From contig NC_018068.1 of assembly GCF_000255115.2 (NCBI RefSeq), positions 2,823,977-2,887,976 of the forward strand: a stretch of DNA of 64,000 nucleotides, in the 5' to 3' direction. The stretch comes from Desulfosporosinus acidiphilus SJ4 (lineage in GTDB: Bacteria; Bacillota; Desulfitobacteriia; Desulfitobacteriales; Desulfitobacteriaceae). Within the stretch, counting starts at the first letter, position 1. The number at the start of each line of letters is the position of its first letter. Shown piece by piece: positions 4,253-46,143 of the stretch. A program made the position numbers and the translations under genes. The notes under the pieces were generated by a model. The model was not told the origin of the DNA and searched no databases. It was given only the letters and a program-made list of their open reading frames with translations.

Positions 4253-4705
4253 TTAATAATCCTCTTCCTCTGACTCAATATCTTCCGAATAAGCAGCCAA
4301 AATCTCTTCAACTTTATTTAAGGTAGCTGACACAATATTGCCGCAGCGAACAGGATACTCGTTCCCTTCATCCAGTGACTGGTCCAAAATCCCTTCACAA
4401 TCCGTATTGCCATGAACATCTTCAAACCACTCTAAGAGTTCACGAAGCATCATGTTGATTTTGGGATGCCCAAATTCACCGGGATTGCCTTTCCCGGCGT
4501 TTAAACCTATCAAACAAGCCCCTCCGGTCAGAGCCCCGCAGGTTTTTCCCGACCTTCCTATTCCCCCGCACAAACCATGCATTGCTTTGATCAGGTCAGG
4601 ATTTTCTTTTCCCAAAGTATCTAACCCTAAGATTAACATGATTTGGCTGCAGCAAAATCCTTGAGCCGCCAGTTGAAACATCCGAAAGGCATCGGCCGGC
4701 ATCAT
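4253..4705 (-). CDS. C-GCAxxG-C-C family redox protein (DVU_1555-like)
   Basis: The 150-residue protein shows the family cysteine pattern: FCCSQ near residue 18, CGGIGRSGKTCGALTGGACLIG near 46-68, and late cysteines NTDCEGIL near 100 and VRCGNIV near 120. Family members are small cysteine-rich proteins thought to bind metal or undergo thiol redox chemistry. The C-terminus is acidic. An AAAGGGGG site precedes the tandem ATG ATG start, and the gene begins 10 bases after the preceding small redox gene. Conserved linkage to the Mop-type oxidoreductase suggests an accessory electron-transfer or metal-handling role. The function is unproven. Confidence 0.85.
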   Translation of the reverse strand: MMPADAFRMFQLAAQGFCCSQIMLILGLDTLGKENPDLIKAMHGLCGGIGRSGKTCGALTGGACLIGLNAGKGNPGEFGHPKINMMLRELLEWFEDVHGNTDCEGILDQSLDEGNEYPVRCGNIVSATLNKVEEILAAYSEDIESEEEDY

Positions 4706-4715
4706 GCATCCCCCT

Positions 4716-4928
4716 TTACTTATCTTCCAAGCTTTGCTCGACTTCGAACATTTTGCCCAACGCTAATTCCTCTGTGATGAGCACTATACCGCAGTTAAGA
4801 CATTTTAGTTCTTCAACTTCAAAATCATTGCCCAAATAAGAGGCCTTAACCAAACCCCGTTCCAGTTCGCCGCCGCATTTTCCGCATTTCCAAGCCGTTT
4901 TCTCCGTCTGTTTTGGTGTCTTATTCAT
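4716..4928 (-). CDS. Small CxxC-CxxC redox/zinc-ribbon protein (DVU_1557-like)
   Basis: The 70-residue protein has two pairs of cysteines, WKCGKCGGEL near residue 13 and LKCLNCGIV near 42, as in a rubredoxin or zinc-ribbon knuckle. I chose the ATG at 4928 because it overlaps the upstream stop as ATGAATAA and has GGAGGGAG five bases ahead. The longer frame would lie deep inside the previous gene. Eight-base overlap implies translational coupling. It is likely a small metal-binding partner of the aldehyde oxidoreductase system. Confidence 0.8.
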   Translation of the reverse strand: MNKTPKQTEKTAWKCGKCGGELERGLVKASYLGNDFEVEELKCLNCGIVLITEELALGKMFEVEQSLEDK

Positions 4929-7224
4929 GAGCTCCCTCCACAATTTCCATGCGATGGCAGTACGTATTGAAAACGACAAAACCTTGATTTTGAGGTTCGT
5001 ATTCAACCCAATACGTCACTCTGAGGGGACGATAATGAGCCAAACTATGACCATTATCAGGATTAATAAACTTTCTTCCGGTCCGCTCCGCGTACTCAAT
5101 AACCTGTTGGATATCCTCAATAAGAATATGCCGGTCCTCCATGATTTCCCAAACCCTGTCATTTAATTGAAGGTCTATACTCATATAGGCTTCCTCCTTA
5201 GCGGACGGAGTTTCTTGCCACAACGAATGCAGCAGTTTGCGTTTTAATTTAGCCCTATTTTCATGGCGGTAAGAAAAACCAACACCTGGTTTGACTGCAG
5301 CCTGCTCGAGATCGTCTTCAAAAACCAGATCTAAGATGTGTAATGTACGTTTGCCTTTGGAGGCAAACCTATCTCTGCACATAGCACAGTAAGCAACATA
5401 ATCCACGTCGGATTCACTGATGCGGTCCTCGACAATTGTTTGCGCTAATTCACGGTTAGCAAAAGACATCAGTCCGCCATAGCCGCAGCACTTGGTTAAT
5501 TCTTTGCTGTAAGGCAATTCTTCAATGTCATAATTCAGCTTCTTTAAAATTTCTCGGACAGCATTATGGATCGACGGTTCATGTCTCGTTGTGCAGGCAT
5601 CTTGAACTGCCACTTTTCCTCCGTTAAGCTTATTGCCTTGCACAGGGAGTTCCATGTCTGCCATCAGCTCCCACAGAGAAACTATGTCCGGAAACTTCGT
5701 TCGAAACATACTATGACAGGTGGAACAGGCTGTGATGATCTGCGGCTTGCCCAAGTGTTCCCATTCGGCCGCTAAAACTTCTGAATTATTTCGATATAGG
5801 TCTTTTTCACCCGCCCAATCAGCCGGGGCACCGCAGCAGCGCAGCATTAAACCTACGCCTCCGGAAAGGTTTTCCATCAGGAATTTATAAACCTGTTCTA
5901 CTTGATCAGGAGACGAAGCGCTTAATTGGCAACCCGGGAAGAAAACATAGTTACTGGAATTATAGCCCGGTTGATGCCTGGTTAAGGCAAACTTATCGCT
6001 GTTGCTGAAGTCCATATCACGCAAAGCAAACTCATGAGCCGAGGGAGGCATTTTTCCTTTGCTGACCATGCTTTCCCGGCTTGTTTTACAGACCTCTCCC
6101 AAGTCTAACCCTTGGGGACAAACCTCTGCGCACAACCCGCACAAACTGCAGGAGTTGATCATTTTATTTGCATGCCGCATGCCCATGACGATGGAATTAT
6201 TATTGTAGATTTGGCGCAGATACTTCTTGGGATAACTTCCATAGTTCTCTATGTATTTACAGGCCTTTACACATTCCAGACACTGACAATTCAAACATCT
6301 GGCGGCCTCTTTAACAGCTTCTTCAACGGTGTATCCTGCCTGTTCATTACTCATGGGTACTGCCGGCAGTGGTTCAATTCCTTTAGTATTGACGAACAGT
6401 TTACTCTCAAAAGACCCTTCGCCTTCACGAGATGCCGTTAAAGAAACACCTTGTAAAAAACGGTCGATGGAAATTGCCGCTTTTCGGCCATCAGCCACAG
6501 ACCTTATGGGGGAGTCATTGTCCGCCAGGGCTCCGCCAAAAATACCTTTGGTCGTTGTTTCACAGGTAACCGGATCTACTTCGTAATCTTCTCCAAGAAG
6601 ATCAAGCGCATCAGGAGATTGCTTGGCAAGCCCCAGATACAAAGCCTTAAAGTTCTCCTGTAGTTTAGCTAAATCCCGTGATGTTATTTCCTTATTCACT
6701 TCTATCTGAACCTTAAGCCGGGATAAGACGGAAAGTTCTTCACCAATAACCTGCGGCGATAATTGGTTTTCAGGAAAATCCCAGAGGTTTCCGCCAATTC
6801 GATCGGTCTTCTCAAACAATGTGACTTTATACCCTTTTTTAGCCAAATCATAGGCCGCAGTCAGCCCCCTCAGTCCGGAACCTACTATGGCTACAGTCTG
6901 GCTTTTTTCCGGAATTATCCCCGCCTTTTGTGTGTTTCCGGATTGATTTTGCACACAAAATCTTTCCAAGGCTGCAATTGAAATAGGTGATCCAACATCT
7001 CTGCGTTTACAAACATCCTCACAGGGGTGATCACAAATCCGGCCAATAATTCCGGGAAAGGGCTGTTTCTTTTGCAAGGTTGCCCGAGCGCTTTTTAAAT
7101 CCATTTTTTGTATGTCGGACATCAGCTTGCGGGCATCCACATGAATTGGACAGCCCGCGATACAGTCCGGAGGATTTTCTTGGGTACACTTATCTTCCAG
7201 TCGTTTTAATTCCTCTTGTTCCAT
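4921..7224 (-). CDS. FAD-dependent oxidoreductase with multiple Fe-S domains (dicluster-binding, DVU_1558-like)
   Basis: This is a 767-residue fusion. In order it shows a GltD-like N-terminal Fe-S domain (ENPPDCIAGCPIHVDAR near 14, later HPCEDVCKRR), an FAD-binding fold (VAIVGSGLRGLTAAYDL near 112), and a ferredoxin-like segment (CLNCQCLECVKAC and CSLCGLCAEVCPQG). It continues with two HdrB-like CCG modules (FFPGCQ...CCGAPADW, then CCGYGG) and a C-terminal domain of about 80 residues. The ATG at 7224 is preferred over a TTG 48 bases upstream because the latter lacks a ribosome binding site. It probably accepts electrons from the Mop enzyme and passes them on. The acceptor is unknown. Confidence 0.85.
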   Translation of the reverse strand: MEQEELKRLEDKCTQENPPDCIAGCPIHVDARKLMSDIQKMDLKSARATLQKKQPFPGIIGRICDHPCEDVCKRRDVGSPISIAALERFCVQNQSGNTQKAGIIPEKSQTVAIVGSGLRGLTAAYDLAKKGYKVTLFEKTDRIGGNLWDFPENQLSPQVIGEELSVLSRLKVQIEVNKEITSRDLAKLQENFKALYLGLAKQSPDALDLLGEDYEVDPVTCETTTKGIFGGALADNDSPIRSVADGRKAAISIDRFLQGVSLTASREGEGSFESKLFVNTKGIEPLPAVPMSNEQAGYTVEEAVKEAARCLNCQCLECVKACKYIENYGSYPKKYLRQIYNNNSIVMGMRHANKMINSCSLCGLCAEVCPQGLDLGEVCKTSRESMVSKGKMPPSAHEFALRDMDFSNSDKFALTRHQPGYNSSNYVFFPGCQLSASSPDQVEQVYKFLMENLSGGVGLMLRCCGAPADWAGEKDLYRNNSEVLAAEWEHLGKPQIITACSTCHSMFRTKFPDIVSLWELMADMELPVQGNKLNGGKVAVQDACTTRHEPSIHNAVREILKKLNYDIEELPYSKELTKCCGYGGLMSFANRELAQTIVEDRISESDVDYVAYCAMCRDRFASKGKRTLHILDLVFEDDLEQAAVKPGVGFSYRHENRAKLKRKLLHSLWQETPSAKEEAYMSIDLQLNDRVWEIMEDRHILIEDIQQVIEYAERTGRKFINPDNGHSLAHYRPLRVTYWVEYEPQNQGFVVFNTYCHRMEIVEGAHE

Positions 7225-7313
7225 AAGCAACACCCGATTTCCTATGTTATGGATGAAGCAGGGAACCTGCAATCAACGGATCATTTTCAGGCTCCCTGCC
7301 CCAGATTTAATCT

Positions 7314-10040
7314 TTAACCCTTAGCTTGAAGGCCGGCGAGCACCTTTTCCGGACGGGCCGGCAAATGAGTTACCCGTACACCACAGGCATTATAGATAGC
7401 ATTTATAATAGAAGCGTGGGGTGAGGTCAAGGGCAGTTCTCCTGAACCGGCGGCGCCAAAGGGACCATTAGGACGATAGGTTTCCACATAGAGAAGTTGA
7501 ATATCATCCGGTACATCTTTGATAAACGGCAGTCCAGCACCGATAAGATCGGAGTGTTTCTTCAGGTCTTCAAAATCTTCACTTAAAGCAAGGCCAAGAC
7601 CTTGAACTAATCCGCCGTATAGTTGTCCGTCAACCACCAGTCTATTGGCAATTTTACCGACATCGGCAACCATCGTCATCTTTACAACAGTAGTTTTACC
7701 GGTAGTAGTATCGACTTCAACTTGAGATAAGAAGGCACCGTACATATAGACTGCGAAGGGATTACCTTGTCCGGTCTCCACATTGCACTCCGAGGCTGGT
7801 GCTGTCCAAGCGCCTTGGAAGAGCACCGGCAGATTTTCAGCGATCATTTCTTCGTAGGTTCGGAAGGTTCCGTCCTCTTTCTTAATTCCTTCCAGCAGCG
7901 CTTCGCAAGCCACCCGGGTAGCATTTCCGACTAAGACTTGGGAACGGCTTCCTCCGGCAGGACCGCTGTTAGGAGTTCTCTCCATATCATTCATGACAAG
8001 CTTAATATTTTCAGGTTTAATTCCCAAAGGACGCAGCGCTTCATGGGCGGTAGCCAATGATCCCATGTCAGCTCCCTGACCGTGATCCTCCCAAGAGGTG
8101 TAAACCGTTACGCCGGTTGCCGTGAGTTCCACATTAACTGCGGAACTGTCCGCCCCGTCTAAGCCAGATCCGTAGATTCCGATGGACATTCCGATCCCGC
8201 GTTTTTTATTGGGATCTGACGGCGGCTGTTTGGCCCATTCTTTAGCTTTGTCGTATTCAGGTTTAAGTTTATCCATAATATCCACCAGGCAATAGACATC
8301 GGGTTCACAGCCGGTGGGTGTTGTATCGCCGGGGCGGTAGACATTTTTATAACGCAAGTCAAAGGGATCCATACCCAGTTTTTCGGCAAGTTCATCAATT
8401 AGGACCTCAGAGGAGAAGGTGCTTTGCGGTGATCCATACCCTCTGAAGGCGGAACCCCAGGCATGGTTGGTACATACCGTCCGGCCGTTGCCGCGGATGT
8501 TGGGAATATTATAACCACAACCAATAAATTGAGTGCCTCTCATGGTCAGCAGATCACCGAATTCAGAATAGGGACCATGATCTACTGTCCAATCGGATTC
8601 CATGGCAATTAATTTACCTTCTTTAGTAGCACCATATTTAAGATTGATAAAGAAAGGAGATCGTTTTCCGGTATAGGTCATCTGCTGATAATAGTCAAAC
8701 TCCAAGTAAACAGGCTTACCGGTGGCAACTGCCGCGACTCCTAATAAAGCTTCGATAGTCGGACTGAACTTATAGCCAAAGGTTCCGCCCGCGTTGTTTT
8801 GAACTAAGATCAGTTTTTCAGGCTCCATCCCAATCCCTGCACAAATCATGGCTTGATGGAGATGGATTCCAATACTCTTGGAGTGGATAATTAATTTACC
8901 TTCCTCGTCGAAAAAGGCAAAGCCTACATCAGGCTCAATGGGCATATGGGGTTGACGTCCAATATAAAAATCATCTTCCACCACAACATCCGCAGAATCC
9001 ATAAGAGGAGCGGTATCGTCACCCTTCACAAGCTTCGTTTCAAAATAAACATTCGGGGTTCCGGGATGAATCTCCAGAGCATCGTCGGCCATGGCTGCCG
9101 GAGCACTCATATATTCCGGCAGTAATTCCAATTCTACGTTAACCTTCTCAACGGCGGCTTGGGCATGTTCCGGCGTATCAGCGGCAACAATCGCGATAGC
9201 ATCGCCAAATTGGAATACTTTCTTATCACAGAGGATCGGACGATCCCAACCATCCCCTTTGTTGGTCGGAAAAGTAATTAAACCGGTAATTTTGTTTTTG
9301 CCTTTAACATCTTTGGCAGTGATGACTCGATAGACGCCGGGCATTTTTTCCGCTTCTGATGTATCAATAGAAAGAATATTGGCATGTGATACTTTTGCCT
9401 GAACCAGTTTCAGATGTAAGGTTCCACCAGGCATTTTATGTCCGAGATCAGCACCGAAATCCCAAGTCCCTGTAACTTTAGCCAAGGCTGACGGGCGAAC
9501 ATATTTACTGCCCCAAATTCGGCCGTCTTCAGGTAATTTACACCATAACTCTTCGGTAGTAACTTCTCCCCGCATGAGACGAGCCGCATCCATAACGGCA
9601 TCTACTAAAGGTTTGTATCCTGTGCAGCGGCAGGCATTTCTATGCTTCTGAAACCAATCCCGAACCTCTTCTCTTGAAGGGTTCATGTTCTCTGTCAAGA
9701 GCTGCTTAGCTGAAACAATAAATCCCGGACTGCAGAACCCACATTGAGCTGCTCCGTGGATCATCCAAGCAAGCTGCAGAGGATGCAAATGCTCTTTGGT
9801 CCCTACGCCTTCAATGGTTGTTATTTCTGCATTATCGGGAACTCTTTTCATTTTCGTAACACATGAGCGAATTACTTTTCCATTCATGATCACGGAACAG
9901 GCGCCGCATTGACCTTTTCCGCATCCCACTTTTGTTCCAGTCAGATGCATTTGTCCACGCAGTACATTTGAGAGGGTTGTCTCACCGTCGACAATTAAAA
10001 TCTGAGGGTTACCGTTAATCATTACTTTCTTCTTTAGCAA
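7314..10040 (-). CDS. mop: Molybdopterin-dependent aldehyde oxidoreductase (Mop-type)
   Basis: The 908-residue length is almost that of the Desulfovibrio gigas enzyme. A plant-type [2Fe-2S] domain comes first (GCGKGQCGACSV near residue 40), then a helical [2Fe-2S] domain (AQCGFCSPG near 100, CRCTGY near 138). The large molybdenum-binding part follows, with QNNAGGTFGYKF and GSAFRGYGSPQ. Near the C-terminus GSGELPLTSP places a glutamate at about residue 868, the position of the family's catalytic base. No FAD domain is present, as in Mop. It is the first gene of the operon, behind a sigma-54 promoter. It should oxidise aldehydes to carboxylates in the cytoplasm. Its physiological substrate is not evident. 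Confidence 0.92.
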   Translation of the reverse strand: MLKKKVMINGNPQILIVDGETTLSNVLRGQMHLTGTKVGCGKGQCGACSVIMNGKVIRSCVTKMKRVPDNAEITTIEGVGTKEHLHPLQLAWMIHGAAQCGFCSPGFIVSAKQLLTENMNPSREEVRDWFQKHRNACRCTGYKPLVDAVMDAARLMRGEVTTEELWCKLPEDGRIWGSKYVRPSALAKVTGTWDFGADLGHKMPGGTLHLKLVQAKVSHANILSIDTSEAEKMPGVYRVITAKDVKGKNKITGLITFPTNKGDGWDRPILCDKKVFQFGDAIAIVAADTPEHAQAAVEKVNVELELLPEYMSAPAAMADDALEIHPGTPNVYFETKLVKGDDTAPLMDSADVVVEDDFYIGRQPHMPIEPDVGFAFFDEEGKLIIHSKSIGIHLHQAMICAGIGMEPEKLILVQNNAGGTFGYKFSPTIEALLGVAAVATGKPVYLEFDYYQQMTYTGKRSPFFINLKYGATKEGKLIAMESDWTVDHGPYSEFGDLLTMRGTQFIGCGYNIPNIRGNGRTVCTNHAWGSAFRGYGSPQSTFSSEVLIDELAEKLGMDPFDLRYKNVYRPGDTTPTGCEPDVYCLVDIMDKLKPEYDKAKEWAKQPPSDPNKKRGIGMSIGIYGSGLDGADSSAVNVELTATGVTVYTSWEDHGQGADMGSLATAHEALRPLGIKPENIKLVMNDMERTPNSGPAGGSRSQVLVGNATRVACEALLEGIKKEDGTFRTYEEMIAENLPVLFQGAWTAPASECNVETGQGNPFAVYMYGAFLSQVEVDTTTGKTTVVKMTMVADVGKIANRLVVDGQLYGGLVQGLGLALSEDFEDLKKHSDLIGAGLPFIKDVPDDIQLLYVETYRPNGPFGAAGSGELPLTSPHASIINAIYNACGVRVTHLPARPEKVLAGLQAKG

Positions 10041-40019: not shown

Positions 40020-40547
40020 ATGAAAATCCTGATATTATTGGCGTATTCGTTTTTAAAAGTAGGGTTCTTTGGTTTTGGCGGAGGTTTTGCTATGATTCCT
40101 TTAATGGAGCACTTAGCTGTTAAACAGAACCACTGGCTCACTTATTCCCAGTTTTCAGCGGCTATTGCTTTAGGTCAAGTAACTCCCGGGCCGGTATCAA
40201 TCAGTGCGACATTTATTGGATACAAAGTAGCAGGTTTTTGGGGAGCGTTAGTTGCCACAATTGCAGTCTTTTTGCCCTCATTGGCAGTCATATATCTTTT
40301 GGAAATATTTTATTTAAAAATCAGAGGAAATCCGCTTACCCAATCAATCATGCATGGTGTTATCCCGATTATTGTCGCCCTTATTTTAAATGTTGCCTAT
40401 TCGATGGGTAAATCATCAGTCCAATCCCTCTGGCAGTTTTTAATAATAGTTATCGTGGCAATTCTCGCTATGCGAAAATCGCTGAATTACGGTGTTTTAA
40501 TTGCTGGCTCAATCTTAACTGGAATTTTATTCAGTGTAAACTGGTAA
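40020..40547 (+). CDS. Chromate transporter family protein, second half
   Basis: The 175-residue single CHR domain has KVGFFGFGGGFAMIPLMEHLAVKQNHWLT near 12 and AIALGQVTPGPVSISATFIGYKVAGFWG near 47. GAGGAGAAAG precedes the ATG. It should act with the gene upstream. Confidence 0.88.
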   Translation: MKILILLAYSFLKVGFFGFGGGFAMIPLMEHLAVKQNHWLTYSQFSAAIALGQVTPGPVSISATFIGYKVAGFWGALVATIAVFLPSLAVIYLLEIFYLKIRGNPLTQSIMHGVIPIIVALILNVAYSMGKSSVQSLWQFLIIVIVAILAMRKSLNYGVLIAGSILTGILFSVNW

Positions 40548-41293: not shown

Positions 41294-41323
41294 AGAGACC
41301 TACCTTAAAGTGAGTAGGTCTCT
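41294..41323. terminator. Terminator of the membrane-anchored hypothetical gene
   Basis: Stem AGAGACCTAC/GTAGGTCTCT with a 10-base loop. On the minus strand it is followed by CTTATTTTTGC, about 130 bases past the stop. The plus strand also has TTGCCTTTT. Confidence 0.75.
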
Positions 41324-41453: not shown

Positions 41454-42710
41454 TTATAGTTTTAAAGGCTGTAATTTGACGGAGCTAGAGTTTCCTGCAG
41501 GAGTAACTTGAATCAACTCAGCACCATCGCTGGAAATATAGTTCTTGTTCCCCTGCAATTTGACATCTGTAAGATGACCATCTAAAAAGCTATATACCGT
41601 CTGTTGATCACGGACAATTATCTGACCATTAGCTCCCACGAGCGAATGTATATTATTAAAGGGGATTGAGCCTTCCCAGAGGGTTTGCAAAGAAGGGTTT
41701 TCTTTGACATCTTGAAGGTCGTTCGTGGTTTTAATTTTTATAAGTTTGTTATTTTTAACTTCGCCGATATAAACTTTTCCTTTTCTGACTCCGAGGATTC
41801 TGTCCGATGTATTCCTTGAGATGATATAACGTTTTTCCTTTTTCGAGGTGCTGTCATACTGGAGGGCAATGATTTGTTGAAGGGCACTTACTTTATTATC
41901 GAAATAAAGCCTTCCGTATCGATCAGAGACGGCCATATTATCGATATGCTCTTGCGATTTGCTGAGGGCGATCAATTTTTTCATAACACCTATTTCCATA
42001 AGTTGTTGTGTGGAACCGCTCTTCACTGTTAAATAGATTAGATTAGTAACCGGTGAGAGAACAAATTTTTCTATTTTCCCGCCGGCAGGAAACTCGTTAC
42101 TGCCACTCTCAAAGGCATGCAGCTGATCATCCGGAGCAGTATCTTCATCACTGTTGGGAAGTTCCAGGGAATGTAGTTCTGTAAGCTGGGGATTTCCATA
42201 GCGTTTCTCAAGCTTTGGCTGGACAGAGGTCTCTGGAGAAACAGGTTTCCCTTGATTCGGGTCTTCGGTATTCGATACAGCTAAAGATGATGGGATTTTA
42301 GGCTTCGGTGGAGACACTTTTTCAGTCGTTATGGCATTAGGGTTTTTCCTGGCATAGAAATAAAGTAAAATATTTCGATCAGGCAGCCATTGATACGAAA
42401 GCACTCCCAAGGTTTCATCATTGGCAGTGGGGGGCCTTTTTTCAAAGACAACCTTTTTCTTTTTAAGGTTGAAAATCTTAAGAGTCCTGTTTTCTATATA
42501 AGCTAAGTAATCTCTGGCATAGGAAACTTGAATGTTGGAAAGCTCAGAACCTGGGATCGTTTCTTGAAGCTCGGTTGTGATAGGTGGTTCATCTGCAGTT
42601 GAATTTCCTAGAATCTGTTGCATTTGCTTATTTAAAAGCCAGTACCCTCCAAATTGTAAGAGAAGTGAAACCAGAATCCACACCAAGAGGGTACGAAGTT
42701 TCTTTTTCAT
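41454..42710 (-). CDS. Membrane-anchored hypothetical protein with beta-propeller-like body
   Basis: The 418-residue protein has one N-terminal transmembrane segment (LRTLLVWILVSLLLQFGGYWLL), a proline-rich low-complexity stretch in residues about 135-170, and a body with many short strand patterns typical of WD40-like periplasmic repeats (IENRTLKIFNLKKKKVVF, YGRLYFDNK, GANGQIIVRD). The ATG at 42710 follows AAAGGAG. The function is unknown. It is downstream of two phosphodiester glycosidase genes, with a 145-base gap, and may work at the cell surface with them. Confidence 0.7.
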   Translation of the reverse strand: MKKKLRTLLVWILVSLLLQFGGYWLLNKQMQQILGNSTADEPPITTELQETIPGSELSNIQVSYARDYLAYIENRTLKIFNLKKKKVVFEKRPPTANDETLGVLSYQWLPDRNILLYFYARKNPNAITTEKVSPPKPKIPSSLAVSNTEDPNQGKPVSPETSVQPKLEKRYGNPQLTELHSLELPNSDEDTAPDDQLHAFESGSNEFPAGGKIEKFVLSPVTNLIYLTVKSGSTQQLMEIGVMKKLIALSKSQEHIDNMAVSDRYGRLYFDNKVSALQQIIALQYDSTSKKEKRYIISRNTSDRILGVRKGKVYIGEVKNNKLIKIKTTNDLQDVKENPSLQTLWEGSIPFNNIHSLVGANGQIIVRDQQTVYSFLDGHLTDVKLQGNKNYISSDGAELIQVTPAGNSSSVKLQPLKL

Positions 42711-42855: not shown

Positions 42856-43824
42856 TTATTTCGTGCCCTCCGGCATTACCACAAAGGCGGTCGGTAAATA
42901 GCGTTCACCAGCCCAATCCCAAAGCTTGTTAATTACTTTTCCGTTATAGTAAAGCTCGGAAGAAGAGCCCCCATCCAGGTTAGCCGCATTAACTGCCCCA
43001 TAATCCCGGAAGAGATTATAGACATCGCTCATTTTAGCCCCCCAACTCGAAAGCTGGCGACCGTCAATAACAACGAGAATTATCGTACCATCCTCTTTCT
43101 GACCAATAGCCGTGCGAGGTGCAACTCCCCATTCTGAGTCCTTAAATTCACACCGTTTTCCGTCCTTTATTAATGGCGGCCAGAAAAACACTGCTTCCTG
43201 GATGTTTTTCTTTTTAATATCTTCCGCCGTAAGTTGTCCCACAATTAGTTTGCCTTCCTTATCTAAAGCTACGATGTCCGTGCTATTATTGCCTATGTTA
43301 TTTTGTAAAATTTCCCCGTTATGGACCGTTAGACCGTCAGGAAAGCCCCCGTTGCCGGCACCGTTAGGATCAGCAAAGCCCCCGCCATTTATTCCTGCAA
43401 CAGCACCGGTGTCTTTAACAAAGTCACTGACTCGTTCCCCTTTAACACCTAATTCTTTGGTCACAGCAACTTTTATCCGTTTAGGGTCCTTGATGAGCAT
43501 TACTTTTCCTTTGAAAGTCTTGCCTTTAATTGTATCTATCGTAATTCCTGCAGAGGCATCTGTTTCGGTAGTCTGAACGGGGCCATCAGAAGCAAAATTT
43601 GCATTATTATATTGGTCTACAAGTTCACTTATTTGCTGATCAGAAAGAAAAGCCTTAACAACCTGAGGATGCCGTGAGGTTAATACGGAACCCACCGCTA
43701 TTGTTTTAGTGGCATCAAAGGGTCCCCAGAAAATTATAAAAGGAGCAAGGATTATTGAGAAAACAGCATTGAATAGGAGAAAGACTAAAATCCTAATGAG
43801 TCGTATCTTTCTTTTCTTGCTCAT
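42856..43824 (-). CDS. Phosphodiester glycosidase (NAGPA-domain) family protein
   Basis: The 322-residue protein has an N-terminal membrane anchor (ILVFLLFNAVFSIILAPFIIFWGPF) and a NAGPA domain: AVAGINGGGFADPNG near 140, APRTAIGQKEDGTIILVVIDGRQ near 240, and NLDGGSSSELYYNGKVIN near 280. These motifs mark phosphodiester glycosidases related to the human uncovering enzyme and bacterial exopolysaccharide proteins. GGGAGG precedes the ATG. It lies nine bases after the M56-glycosidase fusion gene and its domain is a close paralogue of the fused one. Confidence 0.88.
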   Translation of the reverse strand: MSKKRKIRLIRILVFLLFNAVFSIILAPFIIFWGPFDATKTIAVGSVLTSRHPQVVKAFLSDQQISELVDQYNNANFASDGPVQTTETDASAGITIDTIKGKTFKGKVMLIKDPKRIKVAVTKELGVKGERVSDFVKDTGAVAGINGGGFADPNGAGNGGFPDGLTVHNGEILQNNIGNNSTDIVALDKEGKLIVGQLTAEDIKKKNIQEAVFFWPPLIKDGKRCEFKDSEWGVAPRTAIGQKEDGTIILVVIDGRQLSSWGAKMSDVYNLFRDYGAVNAANLDGGSSSELYYNGKVINKLWDWAGERYLPTAFVVMPEGTK

Positions 43825-43833
43825 AATACCTCC

Positions 43834-45672
43834 CTAAGAAACAATAAATGCTGTGGGAAGATAGCGTTCACCATAGAGACTCGAAAGTCGGTTCTGAACT
43901 TTACCTTGATAAACCATCTCTGAAGAGGAACCGCCATCAAGGTTTACCGCGTTGACTGCCTGATAATCAGCAAAAACTTTCGTAAGGTCACGTAAGGTCG
44001 CCCCTAGACTCCAGGTTGGTTGTCTCCCATCAATAACAACAAAAATGACGGTTCCATCTGCCCTTTGCCCAATACCTGTCCTGGGAGCAATTCCCCAGCC
44101 ACCGTCTCCTGAGATTACAGCTTTGCCATTAACTATAAGGTTGGGGCTGAATGTTGCCACTTCGCGCAGGTTGCTCTTCAGCAGTTTTTTTGCTGTCATA
44201 TTGCCCGCTACGAGTTTCCCCTGCTCATCAAATCCGACAATATTAACGGCTTTGTCCCCTACATCGTTATAGACTATTTTCCCGTCATGCATAATTAAAC
44301 CCTCAGGAAAAGCACCGGTTCCTTGACCATTAGGGTCAGCGAATCCTCCGGCATTAATCCCAGCAATAGCTCCCTTATCTTTGACAAGATCACTAATTCT
44401 TTCTCCTTTGACACCAATATTTTTAGTAATAGCCAATTGAACTCGTTTCGGATCCTTAATCAGCATCACTTTTCCTTTGTAAGTGGGACCGGTAATATCC
44501 TCTATTTTAATTCCTGAACTTAAATCATTGGACTCAGGGAGTACATAGCTATTCCTAGCTTCGTTGCTTTCAGCAACTATCGGCTCAGCGTTCATTACAG
44601 GACCGGTTAATGTTGCCACAGCAATTACGCCAATAATTGCCGCGCTTAACAATATCCATTTAACCGAAGTATGCTTGGGTTTTGCAATGAGCAGAAGTCT
44701 CCTCTTGATTTGAGATTTTGATCCGCCCAAACTTGCTATGCTTGCCATTCTGGGACTGGCCGAGTATGTCTCAGCTAATCTGATCAGCGTATTAGCATAG
44801 TCGTAGGATTGCTCAGGGGCAAGGCGAGATAATACAGAAGCATCACAGGCCGTCTCCTGATCTTCTTTCATTCGTAAAAAAGCATACCATATTAACGGGT
44901 TAAACCAGTGAATTACGACTAATAACTGAGCCAGCAAGTTAACCCATAGATCTTTTCGTTTATAGTGCAATAACTCGTGCAATAAAATATAATTCATCTG
45001 TTCTGAATCAAATGTTTGCTCAAATCCAAGGGGCAATAAGATACGTGGATGAAGCAAGCCAAATAAAGACGGACTATTTACATATCTCGTTGTAATCAAG
45101 GGAATCTCCGCTTTGATCTTTAAATCCAATTTGAGTTTATGGAAATTCGTGAGCAGCCTTTGGTCGCTAATCGAATGATTTTCAATCGTTGCCGAAAACC
45201 GTTTATTCGTTATGACTGTGAAAAGTGACAATATCAGAACTCCAGAGGACCAAATTATGTACGTCAATTGAATAACTATGGGAATATCGCTGCTTAATAA
45301 ACGATTTGTCGGGGGGATGATGGTCTTACTGTCCTTGCTCATTTCTATAGGATTTTTATCCAAATTAGCCTGAAGACTTTTAACCATTGCAGAATAAGGC
45401 ATGTAAGGGTGGTTAAAAGCGTCGGCCATACTTTGCTGTAATTCAGACGAATGGAGAATGTTATACACACTGACAGGACTTGTAGGGGTCCAAGGCAAGA
45501 GTAAACTTAGGAGCAAACTTGACCAAAGCAAATATTGAAAGCGAGCTCCTATTTTAAATCGAAGTATATATTTAAATCCCAGCAAAAAAATCATAAAGAT
45601 GCTCGCTTTGGCAGATATCGTCAAAACCCAGTCAAAAAGGCTGAGATAATTAACCAAACGTTGCGTTAGCAT
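43834..45672 (-). CDS. BlaR1-like M56 peptidase fused to a phosphodiester glycosidase domain
   Basis: The 612-residue protein has BlaR1/MecR1-type membrane helices with the zinc protease motif LLHELLHYKRKDLWVN near 230, a second Glu in EDQETACDASVLSR, and a transmembrane helix near 340. Instead of a penicillin-binding sensor, the C-terminal part (about 380-612) is a NAGPA domain: AIAGINAGGFADPNGQGTG, APRTGIGQRADGTVIFVVIDGRQ and NLDGGSSSEMVY. The ATG at 45672 lies one base after the blaI stop (TGAGATG), behind AAGGAGG. The sensor domain swap suggests it reads a wall or exopolysaccharide ligand. Confidence 0.9.
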   Translation of the reverse strand: MLTQRLVNYLSLFDWVLTISAKASIFMIFLLGFKYILRFKIGARFQYLLWSSLLLSLLLPWTPTSPVSVYNILHSSELQQSMADAFNHPYMPYSAMVKSLQANLDKNPIEMSKDSKTIIPPTNRLLSSDIPIVIQLTYIIWSSGVLILSLFTVITNKRFSATIENHSISDQRLLTNFHKLKLDLKIKAEIPLITTRYVNSPSLFGLLHPRILLPLGFEQTFDSEQMNYILLHELLHYKRKDLWVNLLAQLLVVIHWFNPLIWYAFLRMKEDQETACDASVLSRLAPEQSYDYANTLIRLAETYSASPRMASIASLGGSKSQIKRRLLLIAKPKHTSVKWILLSAAIIGVIAVATLTGPVMNAEPIVAESNEARNSYVLPESNDLSSGIKIEDITGPTYKGKVMLIKDPKRVQLAITKNIGVKGERISDLVKDKGAIAGINAGGFADPNGQGTGAFPEGLIMHDGKIVYNDVGDKAVNIVGFDEQGKLVAGNMTAKKLLKSNLREVATFSPNLIVNGKAVISGDGGWGIAPRTGIGQRADGTVIFVVIDGRQPTWSLGATLRDLTKVFADYQAVNAVNLDGGSSSEMVYQGKVQNRLSSLYGERYLPTAFIVS

Positions 45673-45673
45673 C

Positions 45674-46048
45674 TCATTCCTCCTTTTTTTCAAGGAGTTG
45701 CTTCAGCTCTTCAATTTCGTCTTGAGAAAGTTTTTCTTCTTTAAGGAAAGTAACTAGCATAGGCTTTAATGCTCCGCCAAAAACGCGAGTAAGAAATGAT
45801 TTGCTCTCGGCTTTGATGCACTCTTCCTCTGTTACTAACGGATAGTAGCTATATGATCTTCCCTCTTCTTGAAACCCAAGCACTCCTTTTCTAACAAGCC
45901 TTCCGATTAAGGTCTTAATTGTGTTCGGTTTCCAATCTGTCGTTTGTTCTAAAGCCTTAACAATTTCATTAGCGCTGCATGGTGCTGACGACCAACATAT
46001 TTTCATAACTACCCATTCAGCATCAGATATATTAGGTATATTAACCAA
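45674..46048 (-). CDS. blaI: BlaI/MecI-family transcriptional repressor
   Basis: The 124-residue winged-helix protein has ISDAEWVVMKICW near residue 7 and NTIKTLIGRLVRKGVLGFQEEGRSYSYYP near 42, both classical BlaI features. The start is TTG at 46048 behind GGAAG. It is the first gene of the operon with the M56-fusion gene, and two TACA-N2-TGTA operators lie just upstream. By analogy it should be cleaved by the M56 protease when the sensor domain binds its ligand. Confidence 0.92.
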   Translation of the reverse strand: MVNIPNISDAEWVVMKICWSSAPCSANEIVKALEQTTDWKPNTIKTLIGRLVRKGVLGFQEEGRSYSYYPLVTEEECIKAESKSFLTRVFGGALKPMLVTFLKEEKLSQDEIEELKQLLEKKEE

Positions 46049-46092
46049 GTTATCGTATCTTCCTTTCTTAAAACATATACCATTTCTGTTAA

Positions 46093-46131
46093 GTTTACAG
46101 ATGTAGTTGAACTAATATTACATCTGTAAAC
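46093..46131. promoter_or_regulatory. Pair of BlaI-type operators
   Basis: GTTTACAGATGTA at 46093-46105 and ATTACATCTGTAAAC at 46117-46131 each contain a TACA-N2-TGTA dyad and are inverted relative to each other. They overlap and follow the -10 element of the blaI promoter, the classical arrangement for repression by BlaI/MecI. Confidence 0.85.
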
Positions 46132-46143
46132 GTTCGTTGTCAA
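46115..46143 (-). promoter_or_regulatory. Sigma-A promoter of the blaI operon
   Basis: A perfect TTGACA (46143-46138), a 17-base spacer and TAATAT (46120-46115) on the minus strand. The spacer and -10 lie within the distal operator. Confidence 0.85.

What the first reader, a model, noticed from the sequence alone, without database searches (positions are those of the whole stretch)
43834..46131. BlaI-controlled M56 sensor protease with a phosphodiester glycosidase sensor domain
BlaR1-type sensors normally carry a penicillin-binding domain. Here the extracellular domain is a NAGPA-type glycosidase, and a close paralogue of that domain is the next gene. Two good BlaI operators overlap the promoter. 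This suggests a signalling system that detects wall teichoic acid or exopolysaccharide phosphodiester sugars, not beta-lactams.
Basis: partly seen in the sequence, partly recalled or inferred. Interest (0 to 1): 0.75.

Follow-up and report, generated by a model that had tools for sequence, protein, structure and literature searches.

The report
BlaR1-type sensor carrying a phosphodiester glycosidase
In Desulfosporosinus bacteria, the membrane protease switch known for sensing penicillin has a sugar-phosphate-cutting enzyme domain where the penicillin sensor would be, and it appears to control its own operon, which encodes a second copy of that enzyme, suggesting a switch that senses cell-envelope sugars rather than antibiotics.

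Summary
A 612-aa protein (43834-45672, minus strand) joins an M56 (BlaR1-type) membrane metalloprotease to a C-terminal NAGPA (phosphodiester glycosidase) domain. It lies 1 nt after a BlaI repressor gene and 9 nt before a separate NAGPA gene, which is followed by a membrane-anchored, predicted beta-propeller protein. Two BlaI-type operators lie at the promoter. The fused gene is intact in at least 15 of 82 genomes of the class. Eight active-site residues mapped from BlaR1 are invariant, and the NAGPA part is the more constrained half. NAGPA was joined to M56 more than once: the best M56 tree shows three backgrounds, and one clade is rejected (AU p = 3e-8). Of 12 further M56 proteins scanned, 3 carry NAGPA, 9 carry other or unassigned C-termini, and none a penicillin-binding domain. 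Strict operator pairs occur at two places in the 4.99-Mb genome, both before BlaI-M56 genes, so the main target appears to be its own operon. Best reading: a BlaR1-type circuit whose sensor is a relative of the enzyme it controls, so the ligand is probably that enzyme's substrate. Classical teichoic acid is unlikely (no TagB/TagF-type gene); another wall-glycopolymer phosphodiester is possible. Ligand, BlaI cleavage and induction are untested.

The parts
46115..46143 (-). promoter-like site: -35 TTGACA (46143-46138), 17-nt spacer, TAATAT (46120-46115)
   Evidence: 10 of 12 matches; the region's total of such sites equals shuffles; the same arrangement is visible by eye in upstream sequences of relatives
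46119..46128 (-). BlaI-type operator 1, TACAGATGTA, overlapping spacer and -10
46096..46105 (-). BlaI-type operator 2, TACATCTGTA, just downstream of the expected transcription start
45674..46048 (-). BlaI/MecI-family repressor, 124 aa, with LVTF at the position of the BlaI N101|F102 cleavage site
43834..45672 (-). M56::NAGPA sensor protease, 612 aa from ATG
44686..45627 (-). M56 (BlaR1-type) domain: H232-E233-x-x-H236, D241, E273-x-x-x-D277, Y292, R325
   Evidence: residues mapped from BlaR1
43840..44373 (-). NAGPA domain in the extracellular sensor position, family motifs intact
42856..43824 (-). separate NAGPA protein, 322 aa, with an N-terminal hydrophobic stretch (probable membrane anchor, judged by eye)
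41454..42710 (-). 418-aa protein, N-terminal helix plus predicted beta-propeller; partner of NAGPA genes also elsewhere
41294..41323 (-). terminator-like hairpin (11 pairs) after the last gene
   Evidence: consensus match only; 4 such sites in the region against 4.0 expected

Best explanation
This is a BlaR1-type signalling operon with a changed input domain. At rest BlaI sits on the two operators and represses the operon. The M56::NAGPA protein sits in the membrane with its zinc protease facing the cytoplasm and its NAGPA domain outside. Binding (or slow turnover) of a sugar-phosphodiester ligand by the NAGPA domain activates the protease, which cuts BlaI before a conserved Phe and frees the promoter. 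The cell then makes more sensor, the separate membrane-anchored NAGPA enzyme and its propeller partner, which process or remove the ligand and end the signal. The logic is that of bla systems: the sensor is a relative of an enzyme it induces. Shown here: domain fusion, gene order, operator sequences, conservation, more than one origin. Inferred from BlaR1: topology, operator binding and BlaI cleavage. Guess: the ligand, most likely a phosphodiester-linked sugar of the organism's own envelope or wall glycopolymer.
For: Pfam M56 plus NAGPA in one frame, and BlaI next to it. Eight residues mapped from BlaR1 (HEXXH, D210, E242XXXD, Y261, R294) are invariant in the 14 fused proteins aligned (also 11 of 11). 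The BlaI cleavage region is LV(T/N)F in 13 of 13 main-clade BlaI proteins, with N-F in 3. The operator pair is present in 13 of 13 main-clade loci: both strict in 9, one strict plus one with a single mismatch in 4 (mismatches read by eye); strict pairs occur at only two places genome-wide. The order BlaI, M56::NAGPA, NAGPA, propeller gene holds in 12 of 13 main-clade loci; the 13th is cut by its contig end. Fused proteins do not form one M56 clade and their NAGPA domains fall in separate places of the NAGPA tree. In Acididesulfobacillus the sensor NAGPA is 91% identical to a separate NAGPA downstream. M56 proteins close to the window's carry other C-terminal domains, so the sensor is a swappable module. 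The NAGPA part is the most conserved part (mean pairwise identity 80% against 64% for the protease part; dN/dS 0.12-0.18 against 0.22-0.33).
Against: No induction, binding or cleavage data. The full-length structure model failed (mean pLDDT 41), so topology rests on homology. The P1' Phe of BlaI is not kept outside the main clade: at that position the BlaI of L085, L099 and L114 has Ile, and that of L048 has Leu, whereas Phe is described as almost invariant in BlaI. The extracellular loop corresponding to BlaR1 EL1 is poorly conserved (39% mean identity), so the BlaR1 trigger (a loop displaced from the sensor active site) may not apply. In the window the gap between NAGPA and the propeller gene is 145 nt (40-78 nt in nine relatives), so read-through there is assumed. 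Two of the fused proteins outside the main clade (L114, L048) have no separate NAGPA beside them, so the sensor-plus-enzyme rule is not universal. Strict operator pairs were not found in the 120 nt upstream of BlaI in L085, L114 or L048.
Confidence: 0.68

Rival explanations
1. The NAGPA domain is not a ligand sensor but measures the NAGPA enzyme itself: the separate NAGPA (or its propeller partner) binds the fused NAGPA domain and sets protease activity, so the circuit counts enzyme copies.
For: Sensor and enzyme are relatives, and in Acididesulfobacillus they are 91% identical. The two genes are neighbours in 12 of 13 main-clade loci.
Against: L114 and L048 have the fused gene without an adjacent NAGPA. 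In the main clade the fused domain is closer to NAGPA genes elsewhere in the genome than to its neighbour.
Confidence: 0.15
2. It is still a cell-wall damage switch that answers beta-lactams or other wall antibiotics indirectly, through wall fragments bound by NAGPA, and the output is envelope repair.
For: In the second fusion lineage the next listed same-strand ORF after the fused gene encodes a secreted-looking protein with a bacterial SH3 match in 3 of 3 loci (72, 406 and 1026 nt away in L114, L085 and L099; the L085 match is below Pfam's own cut-off), and in L114 an Amidase_6 protein follows. These are wall-related products.
Against: No penicillin-binding or beta-lactamase domain found in the sensor or in the other three operon genes. 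No induction data.
Confidence: 0.3
3. The fused NAGPA is simply an enzyme tethered to an M56 membrane anchor; the M56 protease no longer signals and the fusion only co-locates two activities.
For: The NAGPA family motifs are kept in the 11 main-clade fused domains (one has PRSGIG for PRTGIG), so the domain may still be catalytic.
Against: The eight mapped protease residues are invariant in 14 of 14 fused proteins, and BlaI with its operators is kept in the main clade. In L048, L099 and L114 the fused NAGPA has lost residues that are invariant in 74 of 74 stand-alone domains, which fits sensing better than catalysis.
Confidence: 0.08
4. A chance or neutral gene fusion without function.
For: The fused gene is narrow in range: among listed matches it is intact in 15 of 82 class genomes, all in the window's family of 45.
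Against: Conserved over 58-68% identity with dN/dS well below 1 and more than one origin.
Confidence: 0.02

Closest known systems
BlaR1/BlaI and MecR1/MecI of staphylococci and bacilli
   Same: M56 gluzincin membrane protease with the same mapped catalytic residues, linked BlaI-family repressor, paired TACA-N2-TGTA operators (operator consensus of bla systems recalled), C-terminal extracellular domain; in both, the sensor domain is related to an enzyme (class-D beta-lactamase there, NAGPA here)
   Different: Sensor domain is NAGPA, not a class-D beta-lactamase-like penicillin-binding domain; no beta-lactamase or PBP found among the four operon genes; NCBIfam blaR1_generic scores 196 bits against a cut-off of 400
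PetR/PetP of cyanobacteria (BlaI-like repressor and BlaR1-like protease; PMC7896320, passages seen)
   Same: A BlaI/BlaR1-type pair that does not serve beta-lactam resistance
   Different: Copper-linked control of plastocyanin and cytochrome c6; the passages seen mention no glycosidase sensor
NAGPA / DUF2233 phosphodiester glycosidases (Pfam PF09992; human uncovering enzyme, PDB 6pkg, 6pki; bacterial 3ohg, 6ozd)
   Same: The fused and adjacent domains match the family, PDB members are found by sequence, and the window's motifs are intact
   Different: Use as the input domain of a signalling protease was not found in the paper searches made
BlaI-linked M56 proteins with DUF4825, DUF4830 or DUF4309 C-termini
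   Same: Same chassis and repressor with an exchanged C-terminal domain; DUF4830 and DUF4309 versions occur in the same genus
   Different: C-terminal domains of unknown function instead of a recognisable enzyme domain; L048 has both DUF4825 and NAGPA

Membership tests
BlaR1/MecR1 beta-lactam sensor/signal transducers | M56 gluzincin protease with HEXXH, EXXXD and supporting D, Y, R residues | tested here: met
   H232, E233, H236, D241, E273, D277, Y292, R325 invariant in 14 of 14 fused proteins (letters checked); BlaR1 residues from PMC9834060, passages seen
BlaR1/MecR1 beta-lactam sensor/signal transducers | C-terminal class-D beta-lactamase-like penicillin-binding sensor domain | tested here: not met
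   Pfam finds only M56 and NAGPA at E up to 0.01; NCBIfam blaR1_generic 196.4 bits against cut-off 400, aligned to the protease half only
BlaR1/MecR1 beta-lactam sensor/signal transducers | N-out/C-out topology with extracellular sensor | tested here: inconclusive
   Hydrophobic segments found and homology to BlaR1 fit; structure model failed
BlaR1/MecR1 beta-lactam sensor/signal transducers | Induction by beta-lactams | not testable with these tools
   Needs an experiment
BlaI/MecI repressors | Penicillinase_R fold and similarity to BlaI/MecI | tested here: met
   PF03965 E 9e-38; MecI and BlaI structures E 5e-28 to 1e-19; the curated NCBIfam cut-offs for named BlaI/MecI subfamilies are not reached
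BlaI/MecI repressors | Cleavage site with P1' Phe | tested here: met
   LV(T/N)F at that position in the window and 13 of 13 main-clade BlaI; not kept in the other fusion lineages, Ile or Leu there; cleavage itself not tested
BlaI/MecI repressors | TACA-N2-TGTA operators at the own promoter | tested here: met
   binding not tested
NAGPA phosphodiester glycosidases (PF09992) | Profile match and invariant family motifs | tested here: met
   E 3e-44; IDGR, NLDGGSS, PRTGIG, GER intact in the window
NAGPA phosphodiester glycosidases (PF09992) | Hydrolysis of sugar-1-phosphodiesters | not testable with these tools
   Needs an enzyme assay; which motif residues are catalytic was not established from a source
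Classical (TagB/TagF) teichoic acid as ligand source | CDP-glycerol glycerophosphotransferase genes in the genome | tested here: not met
   PF04464 0 matches in G000; the control rings in 3 of 14 genomes, B. subtilis among them

The most novel reading that the evidence does not exclude
BlaR1-type receptors are a general chassis in which evolution repeatedly copies the enzyme to be controlled into the receptor as its sensor. Here the sensed molecule would be the sugar-1-phosphate bond that links wall glycopolymers to peptidoglycan (the bond made by LCP proteins, GlcNAc-1-P on carbon 6 of MurNAc, chemically like the substrate of the human NAGPA; recalled chemistry), so the system would be a receptor for wall-polymer attachment or turnover.
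Probability: 0.22. Interest if true: 0.75.

Novelty: new variant of a known kind. Interest (0 to 1): 0.57.

Why it matters
BlaR1 is the textbook case of a receptor that signals by cutting a repressor, and it is studied almost only for beta-lactam resistance. A conserved version with an identifiable enzyme as sensor, joined more than once (probably three times or more) and in most copies placed beside its own enzyme relative, gives a concrete ligand class to test. It suggests that the bla systems are one use of a broader design in which sensor and induced enzyme share ancestry. It would also give the bacterial NAGPA family, whose substrates in Bacillota are, as far as I know, largely unknown, a regulatory context and a reporter for finding its substrate.

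Tried and rejected
Structure: AlphaFold2 of the full fused protein from 6 sequences gave mean pLDDT 41 and was not used; no fold search was run on it. The propeller gene gave 74.6, and the listed Foldseek hits are mostly propellers of many kinds with TM-scores (by query length) under 0.5, so only the fold class is taken.

Substrate: I looked for the catalytic residues of NAGPA in print. Das et al. 2013 is not held (tried by DOI and by PMC id), and a further search gave nothing usable in its listing. I therefore speak of family motifs, not catalytic residues.

Teichoic acid as ligand was tested by gene content and weakened.

Chance fusion, annotation artefact and sequencing joint were rejected by conservation.

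A single origin of the fusion was rejected for the M56 part (AU p = 3.15e-08). The best M56 tree needs 4 changes of the label, but well-supported branches alone force only 2, and long branches are present, so the number of origins is unsure; 'three backgrounds' (window clade; L085/L099/L114; L048) describes the best tree. Even inside Desulfosporosinus the fused proteins fall in more than one cluster at unresolved forks.

In one search two identity comparisons (f48 against l19, wf against l2) picked wrong frames and were discarded; the identities quoted instead come. The phylum sample scored at most three candidates per genome, and the lists are capped or cut by an E-value, so their counts of fused genes are lower bounds. 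A search for single strict operators gave 5 rows at 4 positions, against 2 for the reversed pattern, so single sites are near chance.

In print: the text searches NAGPA + BlaR1 and phosphodiester glycosidase + BlaI gave 0 papers. The broader searches listed no paper whose title or abstract start describes such a sensor. Only open-licence PubMed Central text was searched, and domain-architecture databases were not available.
Full report
What is there. On the minus strand the window holds, in order, a promoter-like site with two BlaI-type operators (46096-46143), a BlaI-family repressor (45674-46048), a fused M56::NAGPA gene (ATG at 45672, end 43834), a separate NAGPA gene (42856-43824) and a 418-aa gene (41454-42710 from its ATG), with a terminator-like hairpin at 41323-41294. 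Gaps are 1 nt, 9 nt and 145 nt. The next listed ORF downstream (40020-40547) is on the other strand, so the operon most likely ends there. The organism is a Desulfosporosinus species by its neighbours: four named relatives at 58-68% identity over the whole fused protein are Desulfosporosinus, and the window lies in a 4.99-Mb genome, 99.99% complete.

How conserved it is. In the genus scan (29 genomes) the fused gene is full length in 11 genomes, the window's included, at 58-68% identity in the other 10. One more (G403) has a 34% identical fused gene, one (G421, 57%) is cut by its contig end and one (G408) is in two frames. In a sample of 398 genomes of the phylum only G000, G003 and G325 showed it in the listed matches, with at most three candidates scored per genome (G325 confirmed). 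The order BlaI, M56::NAGPA, NAGPA, 418-aa gene on one strand is kept in 12 of 13 main-clade loci; the 13th, L097, ends at its contig edge. In one of the 12 (L098) the fused gene is split, and in another (L091) the separate NAGPA has a stop after 32 codons.

The protease half. Eight residues described for BlaR1 (HEXXH, D210, E242XXXD, Y261, R294; PMC9834060, passages seen) correspond to H232, E233, H236, D241, E273, D277, Y292 and R325, invariant in 14 of 14 aligned fused proteins. The BlaI proteins of 13 main-clade loci keep Phe at the P1' place of the BlaI cut, with Thr or Asn before it; the BlaI proteins of the other fusion lineages have Ile (L085, L099, L114) or Leu (L048) there. A zinc protease that cuts BlaI is thus likely in the main clade, though not shown.

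The NAGPA half. Family motifs are kept in the 11 main-clade fused domains, with one PRSGIG for PRTGIG. Two aspartates (in IDGR and NLDGG) are invariant in 74 of 74 stand-alone domains in that alignment. Among 15 fused domains the first is Asn in 2 (L099, L114) and the second is Asn in 1 (L048); the Ser after GGS, invariant in the 74, is also changed in these three. So some sensors outside the main clade may have lost activity, while the window's may keep it. Within the main clade the NAGPA part is more conserved than the protease part: mean pairwise identity 79.7% against 64.2% in 55 pairs, dN/dS 0.12-0.18 against 0.22-0.33 in four pairs. The joining linker and the first extracellular loop are variable (32% and 39%).

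Origin. The NAGPA tree (80 domains) needs at least 6 changes of the fused label on well-supported branches. This count is inflated because two rows are pieces of fused genes that the script did not label as fused (the truncated L004 copy of the window and the split L065). The main-clade fused domains sit among the genus's stand-alone NAGPA genes, in more than one cluster at unresolved forks, while the adjacent NAGPA belongs to another branch (99/94 support). In Acididesulfobacillus (L085) the fused domain is sister to the NAGPA about 1.6 kb downstream, at 91% identity. The M56 tree (27 rows) rejects one clade of fused proteins (p-AU 3.15e-08); its best form has three backgrounds, while well-supported branches alone force 2 changes. 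Of 12 M56 proteins scanned beyond the window's, 3 carry NAGPA (L048, L085, L099), 3 DUF4830, 1 a sub-cut-off DUF4829 match, 1 DUF4309 (with a sub-cut-off PsbP-like match; this is the genome's other strong M56), and 4 had no C-terminal match; none had a penicillin-binding domain. The chassis is therefore modular.

What it controls. The strict operator pair TACANNTGTA-N6-24-TACANNTGTA occurs twice in the genome: here and before the second BlaI-M56 gene (2896399), with 0 for the reversed-pattern control. Single strict sites TTTACANNTGTAA occur at three further positions, near the level of the reversed control (2), and were not followed up. So the main target is its own operon. The separate NAGPA and the 418-aa gene are a pair that also occurs without BlaI or M56 beside it: L120 and L121, L086 and L087 (by eye for the neighbours), and two further copies in this genome (L049, L050), which lie far from the M56 and BlaI matches. 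The 418-aa protein is predicted to be a beta-propeller behind one N-terminal helix (pLDDT 74.6; fold hits to propellers).

What the signal may be. In the second fusion lineage the next listed same-strand ORF after M56::NAGPA encodes a small secreted-looking protein with a bacterial SH3 match in 3 of 3 loci: L114 (72 nt away), L085 (406 nt; E 0.0006, below Pfam's own cut-off) and L099 (1026 nt). In L114 an Amidase_6 protein follows. This points to the cell wall, though co-transcription is not shown, least of all in L099. Classical teichoic acid is unlikely in this genome: no PF04464 match. LCP proteins (3) and a WecG/TagA-type gene (1) are present, so a wall glycopolymer linked through a sugar-1-phosphate is possible. 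That bond is chemically like the known NAGPA substrate (recalled). The step from here to a named ligand is a guess.

Comparison with what is known. It works like BlaR1/BlaI but is not a BlaR1 in the strict sense: the penicillin-binding domain is not found and the NCBIfam BlaR1 cut-off is not met. A non-beta-lactam BlaI/BlaR1-type pair has precedent in cyanobacterial PetR/PetP (PMC7896320, passages seen). A review (PMC7593790) describes the class with beta-lactam sensors in the passages seen. Two papers mention NAGPA in extracellular multidomain proteins (PMC11488536 and PMC12419801, passages seen). The text searches NAGPA + BlaR1 and phosphodiester glycosidase + BlaI found no paper. I file it as a new variant of a known kind.

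Limits. No induction, binding, cleavage or activity has been measured. Topology is by homology. The full-length model failed. The number of fusion events is not settled. Which NAGPA residues are catalytic was not established from any source here.

Noticed in passing
L098 (G408) around 6700-6870: The fused gene is split in two overlapping frames at a run of C at the M56/NAGPA junction; natural frameshift or draft-assembly error cannot be told apart.
   Followed up: partly
L115 (G425) 5287-6471: A BlaI gene is followed directly by a NAGPA domain with the M56 part missing and no obvious anchor: probably a decayed copy of the operon.
   Followed up: partly
L095 (G405) 4692-7276: A second BlaI-M56 pair with another C-terminal region and an in-frame stop lies directly upstream of the NAGPA operon, on the same strand, as if from tandem duplication with sensor exchange.
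   Followed up: partly
L093, L094, L098, upstream of BlaI (L098 2608-5070): In three close relatives a large protein with a distant NAGPA domain (and a sub-cut-off Ig-like match in the one scanned, L098) is encoded just before the operon.
   Followed up: no
L044 4943-7386 (G000:C3 about 2893942-2896385): The genome's other strong BlaI-M56 pair has a DUF4309 C-terminus (plus a sub-cut-off PsbP-like match) and a strict operator pair just upstream of BlaI.
   Followed up: partly
L107 (G325) 4316-7879: A NAGPA gene lies divergently beside a BlaI-M56 pair whose C-terminal domain is unassigned: another NAGPA/M56 neighbourhood without fusion.
   Followed up: no
L049, L051, L053, L086, L087 and L120, L121: NAGPA plus the propeller gene recur as a pair at two chromosomal settings: beside a UPF0182-like/OsmC-like region, and beside threonine synthase- and prephenate dehydratase-like genes; neighbour names are by eye from sequence, not from a family search.
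   Followed up: partly
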